From assembly GCA_002717915.1 (NCBI GenBank), contig PBCV01000024.1:1-5801 (forward strand): a stretch of 5,801 nucleotides of DNA, written 5' to 3'. The notes under the pieces were generated by a model. It saw only the letters and a list, made by a program, of their open reading frames with translations. It did no database searches and was not told the DNA's origin. This DNA is from Fidelibacterota bacterium (GTDB taxonomy: Bacteria; Fidelibacterota; Marinisomatia; Marinisomatales; UBA1611). Below, in pieces: positions 1 through 5,698 of this stretch (position 1 is the stretch's first letter; the number at the start of each line of letters is the position of its first letter). The position numbers were made by a program, and so were the translations under genes.

Positions 1-1232
1 ATTTCCAGATAACTGTCATCTTCTGCAATCGCTGAAGATACAATTGAAGGAAGAGTTCCAACTGCAACCGCATAATTCCCAATTTGCCCGCTATAGCCAT
101 CTAAAACAATATAATAGGTACCCGCTTCAAGACTAATACTATCAATAATACTTGCGTAATGCGGGGGATCAACACTTGCTTCGGGACAGAAATCCTGTGT
201 CCCATCATCCGATTCAATAATTGAAACATCATTACCACAGGCATCCTTAATTGATACAATTGTATCAAAATTTGTTAGGGTATCGCACGTGTCAATATAA
301 ATATTCCTTTGTGTAGACAATGTCAGTTCATATGCATAATCAACTCCATGTGGATAATTCTGAAAATTCCAATCGTCTCCCATTGTTTCATCAAGAGTTG
401 CTGCATGAAAAAAAGGCAATGCAGCAATCACAGAGTCTACACAGGCACCTGAACCTAAACAGATATCATTGTTTCCATATACATCTGCATCCCAATAACC
501 ACTGCCCGAATTTGTAAGTGTGCCATCATTTCCGTTTCCAGTCAGATCCGTTATGGTTGCATCATTCCCATCGTTAAAATTCCAATAGCCAATCAGTCCA
601 GGGTTGCCAATTGGAGAATTGCACATAACCGTCTGAAGTGTATTCTGGTCCAAGGCAGTATCCCATAAACGTACTTCATCAATACCACCGCTAAAATAAC
701 CATCAGAACCACCTGGATTATTATTACTCTTACCAATTTTCATTTCCACAGTTTCAATATATTCCCAATTGACGTTTCCGCCTTCCGTATTAAAACTTGC
801 CTGCTCTACGCCATTTTTAAAAACTTTTGCCTGTCCTGTTGCAGAATCATAGATCCCTGCAACATGTGTCCATACATCCTGATCAAGCGTTGTACCAGGC
901 CAAACTCCCAGACCATCGCCATAGATATCATAGTCTCCCGTACCTACGCTCAAGATAAAGCGTAATTCATTTTCAAAATACAGTAGGGTAAAACCGGATT
1001 CTTCTGTTGGGCCACCCAGTCTGAAGTAGTGTACAATAGGGGCAAAGTCTGAGTAGTTTTGAAGTTCAGGATTAACCCAGCACTCAATAGTCATACCTGT
1101 TTCTGTTTGAAGAGATGAATTGCTGCCAATTGTTACAAAATCATTTTCTTGAAAGGTAAAACTTGAGTCCTGAGCCCGCAATTGTACAGAACCAAACAAA
1201 ATTATAGTAATTAAGTAAAATCTATTCAACAT
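1..1232 (-). CDS. Secreted LamG-domain and PPC-like domain protein, C-terminus beyond window
   Basis: The frame is open from ATG at 1232-1230 to the window edge (410 codons, no stop), so the C-terminus is missing. Residues 1-20 form a signal peptide (MLNRFYLITI, then a hydrophobic run ending QLRA, cleavage before QDSS). Residues about 24-240 match a LamG/concanavalin A-like jellyroll: GMTIECWVNP (46-55), VWTHVAGIYD (120-129), KVFKNGVEQ (136-144), FSGGIDEVRLWD (180-191), LIGYWNFNDG (213-222), TGNGNDGTL (231-239). Residues about 275-392 resemble a pre-peptidase C-terminal (PPC)-like beta-sandwich: FDTIVSIKDACGND, then LEAGTYYIVLDGYSGQIGNY. Such modules usually sit in large exported adhesins or glycan-binding proteins, so a surface role with carbohydrate or protein binding is inferred; no catalytic domain is visible. 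Seven cysteines lie in the mature part, suggesting disulfides. The start overlaps the end of the preceding lipoprotein gene by 11 bases, implying translational coupling. More repeats and a sorting domain may follow outside the window. Confidence 0.85.
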   Translation of the reverse strand, partial: MLNRFYLITIILFGSVQLRAQDSSFTFQENDFVTIGSNSSLQTETGMTIECWVNPELQNYSDFAPIVHYFRLGGPTEESGFTLLYFENELRFILSVGTGDYDIYGDGLGVWPGTTLDQDVWTHVAGIYDSATGQAKVFKNGVEQASFNTEGGNVNWEYIETVEMKIGKSNNNPGGSDGYFSGGIDEVRLWDTALDQNTLQTVMCNSPIGNPGLIGYWNFNDGNDATITDLTGNGNDGTLTNSGSGYWDADVYGNNDICLGSGACVDSVIAALPFFHAATLDETMGDDWNFQNYPHGVDYAYELTLSTQRNIYIDTCDTLTNFDTIVSIKDACGNDVSIIESDDGTQDFCPEASVDPPHYASIIDSISLEAGTYYIVLDGYSGQIGNYAVAVGTLPSIVSSAIAEDDSYLE

Positions 1233-1791
1233 TAATATAACCCGTTCCAAAATCTTTAATTCTTACAGAATCATTATTGGCATCACGAAGCCTGGTATTG
1301 GGCCCATACAATAATTCTGACTCACCTGTCGATAGTGTTGAAAAATAAACTGTAGCCAGGGACCAGGTACCTCCTTCATTCTGATCCGATTCCATATCCG
1401 GAAGGTAATAGATAAAAATATCCAGAACTCCTTGTTCATCCACCGTGACTTCCATTGGATTATTTTCTCCCGTGAAAAAAGGGCCGGGGATAACAGAATC
1501 AACTGTTACACTGCCCCAATCATATCTCACATCTAAATGAGCGGCTGCTGCAGGATCCAGTTTTAATCCGTAGAGTTCAACCAAAATTGAGGCACCAACT
1601 GTAGCGTTAATCTCTGGCGGGTGAAAAAAAAGTGCCGGAGGGTCTAAGTCCATGTTCTCAGGATCAAAGGGATTATCTAATTCATAATTGGCTTCTTCAC
1701 ATGAAAACAATAAAAATGTACTTAAACCAATGACCCGAAATATGGGCTTAAACTTATGGAAAATTAAAATTGAGCTGAACCTGGTTAACAT
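1222..1791 (-). CDS. Cohesin-like domain lipoprotein
   Basis: This gene encodes 189 residues ending in TAG. Residues 14-30 are a basic then hydrophobic export signal ending LFS before Cys31, a lipobox-like site (Phe at -2 is unusual), so it is probably a lipidated envelope protein. NPFDPEN at 40-46 is a linker-type motif seen near the N-terminus of many lipoproteins in Marinimicrobia-like genomes. Residues about 60-189 follow the cohesin pattern: ATVGASILVEL opening strand, VRYDWGSVTVDSVIPGPFF, a DEQGVLDIFIYY strand, GTWSLATVYFSTLSTGES (compare GSGTLATITF in cohesins), LRDANNDSV, and a closing GTGYINVE strand. Cohesins bind dockerins or act as general beta-sandwich adhesion modules; no dockerin is visible in this window, so the partner is unknown. 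The ATG at 1791-1789 lies 38 bases inside the preceding gene and has only a weak ribosome binding site, consistent with coupled translation. No later ATG would keep the signal peptide. The cohesin call is by pattern only. Confidence 0.8.
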   Translation of the reverse strand: MLTRFSSILIFHKFKPIFRVIGLSTFLLFSCEEANYELDNPFDPENMDLDPPALFFHPPEINATVGASILVELYGLKLDPAAAAHLDVRYDWGSVTVDSVIPGPFFTGENNPMEVTVDEQGVLDIFIYYLPDMESDQNEGGTWSLATVYFSTLSTGESELLYGPNTRLRDANNDSVRIKDFGTGYINVE

Positions 1792-3151: not shown

Positions 3152-3652
3152 CTAAAATTGTCTCATTGGGTTGTCCCTGTACCACTGATCCAGGTACATA
3201 GAAATCAATTGGTTGATGGATTTTTCTACATCCCGGTAGAGATTTTGTGATGATGTCTGACCCATAACTTCATGAGAAAATATCTTACTGGTCATGAGTT
3301 TTTTTGTGATGAGTGTGTCGGCCATAGAGCGGTAATACATGGGTTCTGAAATACTGTAATTATATATGCTGAAAATGACCAGGAATGATGAAACTCTTTC
3401 TACCCTTGAATCAACTATATGAACATCAACTACCATTTTGGGCATCTGCTCTGCAACCATTTGAATATCATGTTCTAAAAACCGAAGCTCAATAAAACTT
3501 GAAACGCGTCCTTCCCAAACTGCATCTTCAAGTCCTTTAACATTCAGTTCCAAAGTTAACTCTTCAATGCCTTTAAGGTTGCCATTATACCATACGCTCT
3601 GTGCAGATACCATTGAAATGAAAAGAGCAGAATAGATCAGCTGTTTAACCAT
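3152..3652 (-). CDS. Small exported protein of unknown function
   Basis: This gene encodes 166 residues ending in TAG. Residues 1-17 are a signal peptide (MVKQLIYSALFISMVSA, cleavage before QS), so the product is probably periplasmic or released. The mature part alternates predicted strands (ELTLELNVKG at 31-40, SSFIELRFLE at 51-60, KMVVDVHIVD at 72-81, SSFLVIFSIYNYS at 88-100) and ends in a helix containing DVEKSINQLISMYLDQWY (141-158). The mature part has no cysteines and I see no catalytic motif or lipobox. The strands-then-helix layout recalls small envelope proteins of the DUF4136/YajG kind, but I do not recognise the family. The ATG lies 9 bases after the stop of the selenoprotein gene with only a weak AAGA-type site, so the two are probably co-transcribed and may work together. 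Confidence 0.8.
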   Translation of the reverse strand: MVKQLIYSALFISMVSAQSVWYNGNLKGIEELTLELNVKGLEDAVWEGRVSSFIELRFLEHDIQMVAEQMPKMVVDVHIVDSRVERVSSFLVIFSIYNYSISEPMYYRSMADTLITKKLMTSKIFSHEVMGQTSSQNLYRDVEKSINQLISMYLDQWYRDNPMRQF

Positions 3653-3661
3653 AATTCTTAT

Positions 3662-5698
3662 TTATTTTAATAAAATAATTTTCTGTACTTGGCTATAAGA
3701 CCCTGACTCAAGTTTAACAAAATAAACACCACTCGCTTTTGCAGATCCATTCCATTGAAGTTCCCTGTATCCAGGAGATAGTGTTTTATTCAATAATTCT
3801 GTAACAAAATGGCCATTACTATTAAAAATACCAATGCTCACAGGTCCTGGTTTTGAAATATTAAAACGAATATTTGTGAAAGGATTGAACGGATTGGGAT
3901 AGGCATGAAAGAGTTTCATCCTGTTGGGAATGATATTGTTCTTACTGACACTTAAATCTTCTCCAGCCAAGAGCACATCCAGGATATAGAGCATATATTC
4001 AGTATCTACTTCATTATTTGCATAAACCAGTAGCCCATTCTGATCCACAATGAAATCCCTGGGGTAAGGGGAACCCTGGTTTGGAATATAATATTCATCA
4101 TAGGTCACACCGCCAAAACCCCCTGGGCCTGTCCCACCGCTTGATTGATCCTGAAGAATGGGATAAGTGATGCCTGTTTCATCCACAAACTGATCAATCT
4201 GATTCTGATTTACAGATGTAACCCCTACAAGAATCACACTGTCTTGGGAATAGGTCTGCCAGATGGATGTCTCAAAATCCGATAACTCCGGAATGCAGAC
4301 AGGTCATCCTGGGGCAAAAAATGCAATCACTACTATTTGGCCTAAATGGTCACTTAAGGTAAAATCACCTGAGCCATTGGCAGCGATGGGCAATGTAAAA
4401 TCCGGTGCATCCAGACCAACAATTCCACCATCGTAATTACCTACTAATAAAACTTCGATTTCTGATTCATCCGGGTCATTGGATGTGATCCGCATCACAC
4501 CCGATGCATTTTGATTCGATTTTGTGTAAATGATCTGCGCGAGAGCTGTATCGCCAGGCTCAATATATTCAGGGAAATTCAGAGTATAGAAATCATTATG
4601 GTTCAGGAAAGGTGGAGAAAATCCCAGAGGGAATTGACCATTGTTTTCAACTAATAAATCAAAGGTATCACTTTCACCAGTTTCCAGAACAGGGAAAGAA
4701 ATATCCCAGGAACTGATATCCAGATCTGCCTCTTCAATCTCACCAAAGGAGAATGTCTGCAAATGCTGCCACTCCGCAGAATATATCACACTGTCCCTGG
4801 CTCCAATGGCCATGGTACGTTTACCTGTCCTTTTATATCCCACCAGTTCAAGGGTTTCGCCTGTCCATTCCAGTATCTTCACATCCAGCCAGTCAGAAAC
4901 AGCAATTTTATTGCTATCAAACACTGCAATTTTATTGGCGAGCCCTTGAGTGTCAAATTGATCCAATAAAACCGGTTCATTTATATTTGAGATTTCATAA
5001 ACAGAAATTCCGTGAGATCCTTCAGCGATAAAAAGTAAACTATCCTGAACTTCCAAATCCTTTACTGAACCTTGTGTTAAAAACGAGCTACCATCACAAG
5101 AATCAATGATACAACTGATCTCTTCAAGAATAACACCAAACTCACCGTTTCCGATTGCAATATGATTAGAATCCACAAATGCCACTGTCCATGCATTTTC
5201 ACAAGATCTGGAATAATTCAATTCAGGATTGATTGGATCAGAAATATCATAGAACAAAACACCATCTTCATGTGCAGCAACTGCCAGCATGTCACCATAA
5301 ATATCCGATCCTTCAAAAGAAGGATTGTTAATATTCGTTCCGGAGACCGATAACGAACCAATATGTTCTGGATTAGACGGGTCAGAAAAATTAATAATAG
5401 CTGAACCATCCTGTCGTGTCCTGCAAGTGAAATAGGCCACACTGTCAGCAGCAGAAACCCAAAGACCTGGCAAGGAACGGTTGCCCATGGGAACTTCAAA
5501 ATTGGTGATCAATGTTGGGTCGGTTGGATTTGAGATATCATAAAAATCATATCCATCCAAATTGCCTGGAATAATCATGATATCCCCAATAATCTCTACA
5601 TCCATGAGCTCCCTTGCAGGAGGGTTAAACCTGTTTTCAAGGGCCAGATTTTTTGCAAAGCAAAGGAATGGAAGGAAAAGAAGGACTATTTTTTTCAT
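3662..5698 (-). CDS. Secreted selenoprotein: LVIVD propeller, thioredoxin-fold UxxC redoxin, T9SS sorting domain
   Basis: One 678-codon gene is read through an in-frame TGA at codon 465 (4306-4304), taken as selenocysteine. Residues 1-15 are a signal peptide (MKKIVLLFLPFLCFA). Residues about 27-320 carry LVIVD-type propeller repeats (YDFYDISNPTDPTLI, VLFYDISDPINPEL, ISVYEISNINEPVLL). Residues about 325-422 are a HYDIN/choice-of-anchor-like beta domain (DLLVENNG.., MRITSNDPDE..). Residues about 426-578 are a TlpA/AhpC-TSA-like redoxin: GLDAPDFTLP, LGQIVVIAFFAPG, U465-P-V-C468, IPELSDFE, VILVGVTSV, and a cis-Pro loop PYPRDFIVDQNG (Pro546). Residues about 590-678 are a T9SS type A-like sorting domain (YPNPFNP at 600-606, SGVYFVKL near 656-663). 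Thiol/selenol redox activity outside the cytoplasm is inferred; the substrate is unknown. Both sides of the TGA share one frame, with 22 codons between it and the first possible downstream start, a GTG lacking a Shine-Dalgarno site. The start is 36 bases after the upstream gene. The alternative is a nonsense mutation or sequencing error of a Cys codon. Confidence 0.85.
4268..4301 (-). promoter_or_regulatory. Candidate bacterial SECIS element
   Basis: Two nested inverted repeats begin 2 bases after the UGA on the mRNA. The lower stem is UGUCU (4301-4297) with AGACA (4272-4268). The upper stem is UCCG (4292-4289) with CGGA (4281-4278), closing the 7-base loop GAGUUAU, or 5 bp with loop AGUUA if a G-U pair forms. 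An asymmetric internal loop (GCAU opposite UUUUG) separates the stems and leaves unpaired U next to the upper stem. The loop starts 15-16 bases after the UGA and has a G in its first two bases. These features agree with the bacterial SECIS layout bound by SelB. The fold was drawn by hand; no energy was computed. Confidence 0.72.
4304..4306 (-). other. In-frame UGA decoded as selenocysteine (residue 465)
   Basis: TGA replaces the N-terminal, normally nucleophilic cysteine of the thioredoxin CxxC motif, giving UxxC (U-P-V-C). The flanking residues are textbook for the family on both sides: hydrophobic strand VVIAFFAPG before, and PVCIPEL after, as in the FWATWCPPCRAE type of TlpA proteins. The complete genes in the window end in TAA or TAG, so TGA is not needed as a stop here, and TGG is used for Trp in normal positions. 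Confidence 0.82.

What the first reader, a model, noticed from the sequence alone, without database searches (positions are those of the whole stretch)
3662..5698. Undescribed secreted selenoprotein hidden as two split ORFs
Seen directly: a 464-codon frame ends at TGA (4306-4304), and the very same frame continues open for 213 more codons to TAA at 3662. The TGA falls exactly at the first Cys of a thioredoxin CxxC motif (FFAPG-U-PVC-IPEL), and the half after it supplies the rest of the thioredoxin fold plus the sorting domain. Neither half makes sense alone: the first stops mid-fold, and the second has no signal peptide, starts mid-domain at a GTG and has no ribosome binding site. Known: UxxC in thioredoxin-fold proteins is the classic selenoprotein signature. 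Inferred: automatic annotation would split this gene and miss the selenocysteine.
Basis: partly seen in the sequence, partly recalled or inferred. Interest (0 to 1): 0.95.

Follow-up and report, generated by a model that had tools for sequence, protein, structure and literature searches.

The report
Secreted propeller-thioredoxin selenoprotein, hidden by UGA
This gene of a likely marine bacterium carries a stop codon in its middle that is predicted to be read as the rare amino acid selenocysteine, giving what is likely an exported redox enzyme; all 66 family members examined in two bacterial phyla keep that stop codon with the same short sequence behind it, none has ordinary cysteine there, and most of the related protein entries we listed are cut off at this point.

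Summary
The finding holds. Minus strand 5698-3662 is one frame of 678 codons interrupted only by a TGA (4306-4304) at the first Cys position of a CxxC in an AhpC/TSA-type redoxin domain. All 66 site-spanning family genes examined (48 in 47 of 245 genomes of the same phylum, 18 in 11 of 80 genomes of the Krumholzibacteriia phylum) have TGA there; none has Cys. Behind it CCGGAGTTNTCGGA is present in 66 of 66, and CCG, GAG and TCG in it are the only fully fixed codons among 50 conserved columns: a likely bacterial SECIS hairpin. The genome has selA, selB and a selD that itself carries an in-frame TGA. tRNA-Sec is absent from this 72%-complete assembly; relatives have it, beside a gene cluster apparently also missing here. 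Of 296 listed database relatives, 277 end exactly before the site, seven show Trp, none Cys. Architecture: likely signal peptide, seven-bladed LVIVD propeller, Ig-like domain, ResA-like UxxC domain, type IX sorting tail (or dockerin). UxxC redoxin selenoproteins are known; this architecture, its apparently Sec-only distribution and its frozen SECIS are not in the 2026 catalogue or, as a dedicated model, in NCBIfam. Sec insertion is inferred very strongly; function is untested.

The parts
3662..5698 (-). Whole selenoprotein gene, 678 codons plus TAA, with one in-frame TGA
   Evidence: relatives with the same site: 48 genes of the phylum and 18 of a second phylum
4304..4306 (-). TGA codon predicted to encode selenocysteine 465
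   Evidence: TGA in 66 of 66 site-spanning family genes; in the best match of 32 of 32 named loci, which partly repeat these
4295..4306 (-). UPVC redox motif (UxxC), residues 465-468
   Evidence: aligns with the CxxC of ResA-type proteins of the PDB
4278..4292 (-). Likely bacterial SECIS core UCCGGAGUUAUCGGA: stem UCCGG/UCGGA, loop AGUUA, apical loop 16 nt after the UGA
   Evidence: CCGGAGTTNTCGGA in 53 of 53 aligned genes and in 18 of 18 genes of the second phylum (five of them are among the 53); synonymous-codon controls; fold (stretches of about 50 nt or more fold differently); single occurrence in the assembly with one mismatch allowed
5654..5698 (-). Likely signal peptide, about residues 1-15 (MKKIVLLFLPFLCFA)
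   Evidence: by eye: charged start, hydrophobic stretch, small residues before the conserved (K)NL; no predictor was run; low pLDDT at 1-15
4739..5653 (-). Seven-bladed beta-propeller (predicted), residues about 16-320, LVIVD repeats
4436..4738 (-). Ig-like (HYDIN/ASH-type) domain, residues about 321-421
   Evidence: PF22544 in 31 of 43 members (not the window's own protein at E 0.01); HYDIN chains matched by the family profile at 320-394
4001..4420 (-). AhpC-TSA/Redoxin (ResA-like) domain holding U465
   Evidence: PF00578 and PF08534 in 43 of 43 members; ResA and other thiol-disulfide oxidoreductase chains
3674..3901 (-). C-terminal sorting domain, residues 600-675 (type IX secretion tail)
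   Evidence: PF18962 / TIGR04183; PF18962 in 30 of 43 members, Dockerin_1 in 11
3152..3652 (-). Next gene downstream, 166 aa, no family match; a similar-looking 168-aa ORF follows the selenoprotein gene in one close relative
   Evidence: ORF at L081:2974-3480, without Pfam match

Best explanation
The gene is very likely a selenoprotein gene: its in-frame UGA, kept in all 66 family members examined and followed in each by the same CCGGAGUUNUCGGA sequence, is predicted to be decoded as selenocysteine by SelB with Sec-tRNA. The hairpin UCCGG-AGUUN-UCGGA behind the UGA would be the bacterial SECIS element. The product would then be exported (likely signal peptide plus type IX tail, or a dockerin in other members), so that the UxxC site of a ResA/AhpC-TSA-type domain likely acts outside the cytoplasm as a thiol-disulfide or peroxide oxidoreductase, with the propeller as a likely docking platform. 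Shown: sequence conservation, domain matches and the presence of selA, selB and selD. Inferred: decoding, export, catalysis, substrate. If selenium is short, translation would be expected to stop at the UGA and yield a 464-residue propeller fragment without the active site.
For: TGA at the same codon in 48 of 48 site-spanning family genes from 47 of 245 phylum genomes, in 18 of 18 genes from 11 of 80 genomes of a second phylum, and in the best match of 32 of 32 named loci, which partly repeat these. Core hairpin in 47 of 48 genes against 74 of 9600 synonymous shuffles; an automatic bSECIS test passes 25 of 48 against 3-11 of 48 in 15 shuffle rounds. CCG470, GAG471 and TCG473 are the only 3 of 50 conserved columns with one codon throughout (43 of 43; median top codon 49%), although these codons make up 20%, 29% and 10% of their residues elsewhere in 48 genes. 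Purifying selection continues behind the TGA: dN 0.08-0.15 in the redoxin part against five close relatives, with dS 0.9 or more or saturated. selA, selB and a selD with internal TGA in the genome. 43 of 47 genomes with the gene have selA and 46 of 47 have selA or tRNA-Sec; Fisher p 0.0009 for gene against selA, relatedness not corrected. selA in 4 of 4 outgroup genomes. 277 of 296 listed database relatives end exactly one residue before the site.
Against: tRNA-Sec is not in this assembly. The isolated hairpin is not unusually stable (z 0.20, -0.91 and -1.19 for three windows), and stretches of about 50 nt or more fold into another structure (-13.4 to -14.2 kcal/mol) without the core hairpin. 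The core shows no compensatory changes because its inner pairs never vary. 23 of 48 genes fail the strict automatic bSECIS test. One family genome (G168) has neither selA nor tRNA-Sec in the listings, and 9 of 47 lack tRNA-Sec there. G167 has two more TGA in its first part and G181 a frame change. Seven database proteins show Trp at the site, most simply TGA translated by code 4, but their DNA was not seen. No protein-level or biochemical evidence exists. A T9SS in this genome was not looked for.
Confidence: 0.95

Rival explanations
1. The gene is broken: a nonsense mutation, assembly error or decaying pseudogene split one ordinary Cys thioredoxin gene in two.
For: Automatic ORF calling gives two ORFs, and the genome is a fragmentary MAG.
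Against: TGA recurs at this codon in 66 genes of two phyla, down to about 27% identity; dN is low on both sides; no Cys version of the family was found.
Confidence: 0.01
2. TGA is reassigned to Trp or Gly in this organism (code 4 or 25) and the residue is not Sec.
For: Seven database proteins carry Trp at the site.
Against: Three of 20 genes inspected in this genome, one of them rimM by eye, end in TGA; several relatives end the same gene in TGA; apart from G167 only one TGA lies inside the frame, at the CxxC position; selA, selB and selD are present.
Confidence: 0.01
3. The UGA is a real stop, and the two halves are separate proteins, the second made by reinitiation at an internal start.
For: The propeller plus Ig domain could fold alone, and databases hold it that way (277 of 296 listed).
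Against: The first half ends inside the AhpC-TSA domain, the second lacks its first strands and a signal peptide, by eye no ribosome binding site precedes GTG 4237, and the invariant sequence behind the stop is then unexplained.
Confidence: 0.02
4. Sec is inserted, but the redoxin domain serves metal or metalloid binding or detoxification rather than general thiol-disulfide exchange.
For: DUF3179 genes lie nearby in 8 of 32 named loci, with an outer-membrane-like protein in six of them and a MerT-like protein in one (many loci are too short to tell); the 2026 catalogue lists DUF3179 and a putative mercuric transport protein among predicted selenoproteins and links several selenoproteins to metals (PMC13188914).
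Against: In the window's own lineage these neighbours were not seen: beside the gene lies a PCMT repair-enzyme gene. The domain is closest to ResA-type thiol-disulfide oxidoreductases.
Confidence: 0.2

Closest known systems
Prx-like thiol:disulfide oxidoreductase selenoproteins (PF00578, UxxC/UxxU; example WP_010940744.1; PMC13188914 Table 1, PMC2398784 'Prx-like 1')
   Same: AhpC/TSA domain with UxxC, UGA plus a bacterial SECIS
   Different: The table lists domain and motif only; propeller, Ig-like domain and sorting tail are not mentioned. In the GOS survey Prx-like 1 has 2,740 Cys homologues against 225 Sec forms, whereas no Cys form of this family was found here
Redoxin family protein selenoproteins (PF08534, UxxC; example HEU0032618.1; GOS 'Prx-like 3' has the same domain)
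   Same: Redoxin domain and UxxC
   Different: As above; the example sequence was not fetched, so kinship with it is untested
ResA-type thiol-disulfide oxidoreductases (PDB 3c71, 1st9, 2f9s; also the uncharacterised 2ls5)
   Same: Sequence profile of the domain and position of the CxxC; likely the same kind of chemistry
   Different: Cys instead of Sec in the solved chains, single domain
Second redoxin match encoded in the same locus in 11 of 32 named loci (TGA in L092, L093, L098; TGT or TGC in eight)
   Same: Redoxin domain, in most with a sorting tail, UxxC or CxxC
   Different: No propeller match; Sec and Cys forms both occur; where TGA, a different sequence follows (GCGGAGGYTCCG)

Membership tests
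Bacterial selenoprotein | In-frame UGA at a position conserved across the family, with coding conservation beyond it | tested here: met
   66 of 66; dN and dS behind the UGA
Bacterial selenoprotein | bSECIS hairpin: loop of 3-9 nt, upper stem of 4-16 bp, G in the first two loop positions, loop 16-37 nt from UGA, MFE at most -7.5 kcal/mol (PMC13188914 Fig. 2 legend) | tested here: met
   Window gene: loop 5, spacing 16, -9.2 to -10.0 in stretches up to about 45-50 nt; longer stretches fold otherwise. Family: 25 of 48 pass the strict test, shuffles 3-11; the core sequence is invariant
Bacterial selenoprotein | selA, selB and selD in the genome | tested here: met
   selD with internal TGA
Bacterial selenoprotein | tRNA-Sec (selC) in the genome | tested here: inconclusive
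   Not in the 72%-complete assembly; present in 38 of 47 genomes with the gene; its neighbouring cluster seems missing here too
Bacterial selenoprotein | Sec shown in the protein | not testable with these tools
   Needs mass spectrometry or selenium labelling
Prx-like / Redoxin UxxC selenoproteins | AhpC-TSA or Redoxin domain with UxxC | tested here: met
   43 of 43 members; UxxC in 48 of 48
Prx-like / Redoxin UxxC selenoproteins | Sequence kinship with the catalogue's example proteins | not tested
   Examples not fetched
Type IX secretion substrates | C-terminal Por_Secre_tail | tested here: met
   30 of 43 members
Type IX secretion substrates | T9SS machinery (PorU, PorV, SprA and others; names recalled) in the genome | not tested

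The most novel reading that the evidence does not exclude
A Sec-obligate surface redox family: two phyla keep selenocysteine without a known exception in an exported propeller-thioredoxin, and the SECIS hairpin is frozen so hard that it dictates the protein motif PE(L/F)SD behind the active site. Export, through type IX tails in some members and cohesin-dockerin docking in others, would make it the first selenoprotein family sorted to the cell surface by these routes, working with DUF3179 and a second Sec/Cys redoxin on extracellular thiol or metal chemistry.
Probability: 0.45. Interest if true: 0.82.

Novelty: new variant of a known kind. Interest (0 to 1): 0.74.

Why it matters
At least 277 database entries of this family are cut at the likely active site, so what may be a widespread extracellular redox enzyme of uncultured bacteria is invisible to annotation. 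It would add a selenium requirement and a surface function to phyla that are hard to culture. The invariant SECIS and the apparent lack of Cys forms give a direct test of why some enzymes cannot give up selenium, and offer the sequence of a likely SelB-binding loop that is fixed across two phyla.

Tried and rejected
Covariation of the SECIS core: none visible, because its inner pairs are invariant; I rely on synonymous-site constraint instead. Folding energy against dinucleotide shuffles: not significant, and longer stretches fold otherwise. RF01852 in the own genome: best hit 46.3 bits, under the cut-off, and ARAGORN calls it tRNA-Ser; rejected as tRNA-Sec. RF00010 was a first look at the assembly and found nothing. 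The Foldseek and VIA searches with the whole model list almost only propeller matches; the redoxin fold is supported by sequence profiles, not by a fold search of its own.

Cys homologues: searches list the best 120 of 400, 553 and 370 hits, so weaker hits were not seen. The 296 distinct proteins listed divide into 277 that end exactly one residue before the site, 7 with Trp, and 12 others: P0218, which by its tail also ends there, three short ones with odd ends (P0201, P0282, P0283) and eight long LVIVD proteins of 994-1171 residues (searches had counted 279 with looser tail patterns). That the next codon in those entries is TGA is inferred; their DNA was not read. In one search, redoxin-only matches without internal stops (for example G198:C71, G194:C40, G195:C12, G070:C59, and G023:C2 in a 1478-codon frame) were not read; most have frames of about 280 codons and look like small Cys redoxins. 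G194:C4 there has one TAG and two TAA in a redoxin-only match, not examined. One search scored 4 candidates per genome and fifteen.

Rows dropped: of the 50 loci L018-L067, L066 (stand-alone small redoxin with TGA) and L067 (propeller part only, no site) were left out of the 48. The protein alignment A1 uses 43 of the 48; L032, L033, L063, L064 and L065 were left out because their start was unclear or they were partial. L033 (G167) has two more TGA in a first part that does not resemble the family. The Rfam scan of L014-L017 found only a TPP riboswitch above its gathering score. The tRNA-Sec survey used a strict cut-off (1e-9) and filters that lose weak matches. Counts of selA and tRNA-Sec among the 47 genomes were made by hand from the listings.

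Papers: of PMC13188914 I read the abstract, sections 5 and 7 and found passages; of PMC9312934 found passages and the table section; of PMC2398784 section 9 and found passages; of PMC1088965 found passages. Other papers were seen only in search listings. 'Not in print' rests in an open-licence library; [quoted passage not shown]

Full report
Observation. The minus strand holds one frame from ATG 5698 to TAA 3662, interrupted only by TGA at 4306-4304. The read-through protein (P0001, 678 residues) has AhpC-TSA at 427-559 across the TGA, a weak LVIVD repeat match and Por_Secre_tail at 600-675. The window is the start of contig C24 of a 52-contig, 1.28-Mb, 72%-complete genome. The nearest named relatives (72%, 72% and 69% identical) are titled Candidatus Neomarinimicrobiota or Marinimicrobia, so the window very likely comes from that phylum.

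Relatives. A read-through search of 245 genomes of the phylum gave 80 with any match at 1e-20. Among the matches, 48 genes in 47 genomes belong to the family and span the site; every one has TGA there. Two are irregular: G181 is split by a frame change, and G167 has two more TGA in its first part. A scan of named genomes gave 32 loci whose best match has TGA in each, two of them titled Krumholzibacteriia; L106 carries two copies in a row. In 80 genomes of the phylum of L106, 17 have a match at 1e-40; the 18 site-spanning matches, in 11 genomes, all have one TGA at the site, and they include the genes of L105-L108. That makes 66 distinct genes, 66 TGA, 0 Cys. In the protein database (best 120 of 400, 553 and 370 hits; 296 distinct), 277 relatives end exactly one residue before the site, 7 show Trp, 12 are others and none shows Cys. 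Trp is most simply TGA translated by code 4, an inference.

SECIS. Eleven bases behind the UGA lies UCCGGAGUUAUCGGA. Across 53 aligned genes CCGGAGTTNTCGGA is invariant, and the preceding T is kept in 52 of 53 although the codon it closes encodes Ala, Ser, Gly or Ile. Leu behind it is TTA or TTG in 27 of 27 phylum genes that have Leu. Of 50 columns with at least 95% one residue, only P470 (CCG), E471 (GAG) and S473 (TCG) have a single codon in 43 of 43; the other five conserved Pro columns have a top codon of 31-49%. Elsewhere in the 48 genes the three codons make up 20%, 29% and 10% of their residues. Synonymous shuffles recreate the core hairpin in 74 of 9600 cases against 47 of 48 native genes; the strict bSECIS test passes in 25 of 48 against 3-11 of 48. 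The window's hairpin meets the published limits (loop 5 nt, spacing 16 nt, G in the loop start, -9.2 to -10.0 kcal/mol; limits from PMC13188914). Against this: it is not unusually stable for its composition, stretches of about 50 nt or more fold otherwise, and its inner pairs show no covariation as they never change. In the assembly the motif, one mismatch allowed, occurs once, here.

Machinery. selA and selB lie side by side on two contigs that are 95.9% identical over 3.8 kb, and selD has its own in-frame TGA (context HGSGUACK). tRNA-Sec is absent. In four family members ARAGORN finds it (anticodon TCA) behind a cluster that by eye reads miaB - small membrane protein - two TPR-like proteins. 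One protein of that cluster, 54-63% identical among these relatives, has only a weak partial match in this genome (24%, E 6.8e-5), so the block is probably missing from the assembly. Of the 47 genomes with the gene, 43 have selA, 38 tRNA-Sec and 46 one or the other (counted from the listings). In the phylum 177 of 245 have selA; the gene is in 43 of these and in 4 of the other 68 (Fisher p 0.0009, relatedness not corrected). Four of four outgroup genomes have selA. TGA is an ordinary stop in 3 of 20 genes inspected.

Neighbours. In the window's contig a PCMT gene lies upstream, as in L081. In 8 of 32 named loci a DUF3179 gene is near, with an outer-membrane-like protein in six of them. A second redoxin match that spans the site lies in 11 of 32 loci, with TGA in three and TGT or TGC in eight. 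So Sec and Cys interchange in the small partner but, as far as seen, not in the large protein.

Judgement. That the UGA encodes Sec is about as sure as comparative genomics makes it. Export is likely. The chemistry (thiol-disulfide or peroxide reduction outside the cytoplasm) follows from the domain and motif. The docking role of the propeller and the metal link are conjecture. Known: UxxC selenoproteins of the AhpC/TSA and Redoxin classes (PMC13188914, PMC2398784). Not found in the 119-family catalogue, as a dedicated model in NCBIfam release 20, or in the paper searches named under Tried and rejected: this architecture, the apparent absence of Cys forms and the frozen SECIS.

Noticed in passing
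L012:1501-2424 (G000:C11:9206-10129): selD of the same genome carries an in-frame TGA (HGSGUACK), so it is likely itself a selenoprotein gene.
   Followed up: partly
L092, L093, L098 and L066 (small redoxin genes): A small redoxin has TGA at its CxxC in some genomes and TGT/TGC in others; where TGA, GCGGAGGYTCCG follows, a possible second SECIS type.
   Followed up: partly
L088, L091, L092, L097, L099, L100, L102, L109: DUF3179 genes lie within about 6 kb of the selenoprotein gene, in six of these with an outer-membrane-like protein of about 310 aa; a MerT-like gene in L091.
   Followed up: partly
L106:5875-9842: Two copies of the selenoprotein gene in a row in a Krumholzibacteriia genome.
   Followed up: no
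L033 (G167): The gene's first part carries two more TGA and does not resemble the family; frame error or decay, unexplained.
   Followed up: no
G000:C33 and G000:C15 (L015, L016): selA-selB occur on two contigs 95.9% identical over 3.8 kb, both ending there: likely two strains in one bin.
   Followed up: no
L015:12223-12326 (-): TPP riboswitch (63 bits) just upstream of a gene that by eye encodes a TonB-dependent receptor.
   Followed up: no
L014:6708-7199 (-): A second AhpC-TSA protein with CPVC (Cys form, 163 aa) lies near the selenoprotein gene, upstream of the PCMT gene.
   Followed up: no
window 3-1250 (-): Protein with a Laminin-G-like domain (PF13385) whose gene runs off the window.
   Followed up: no
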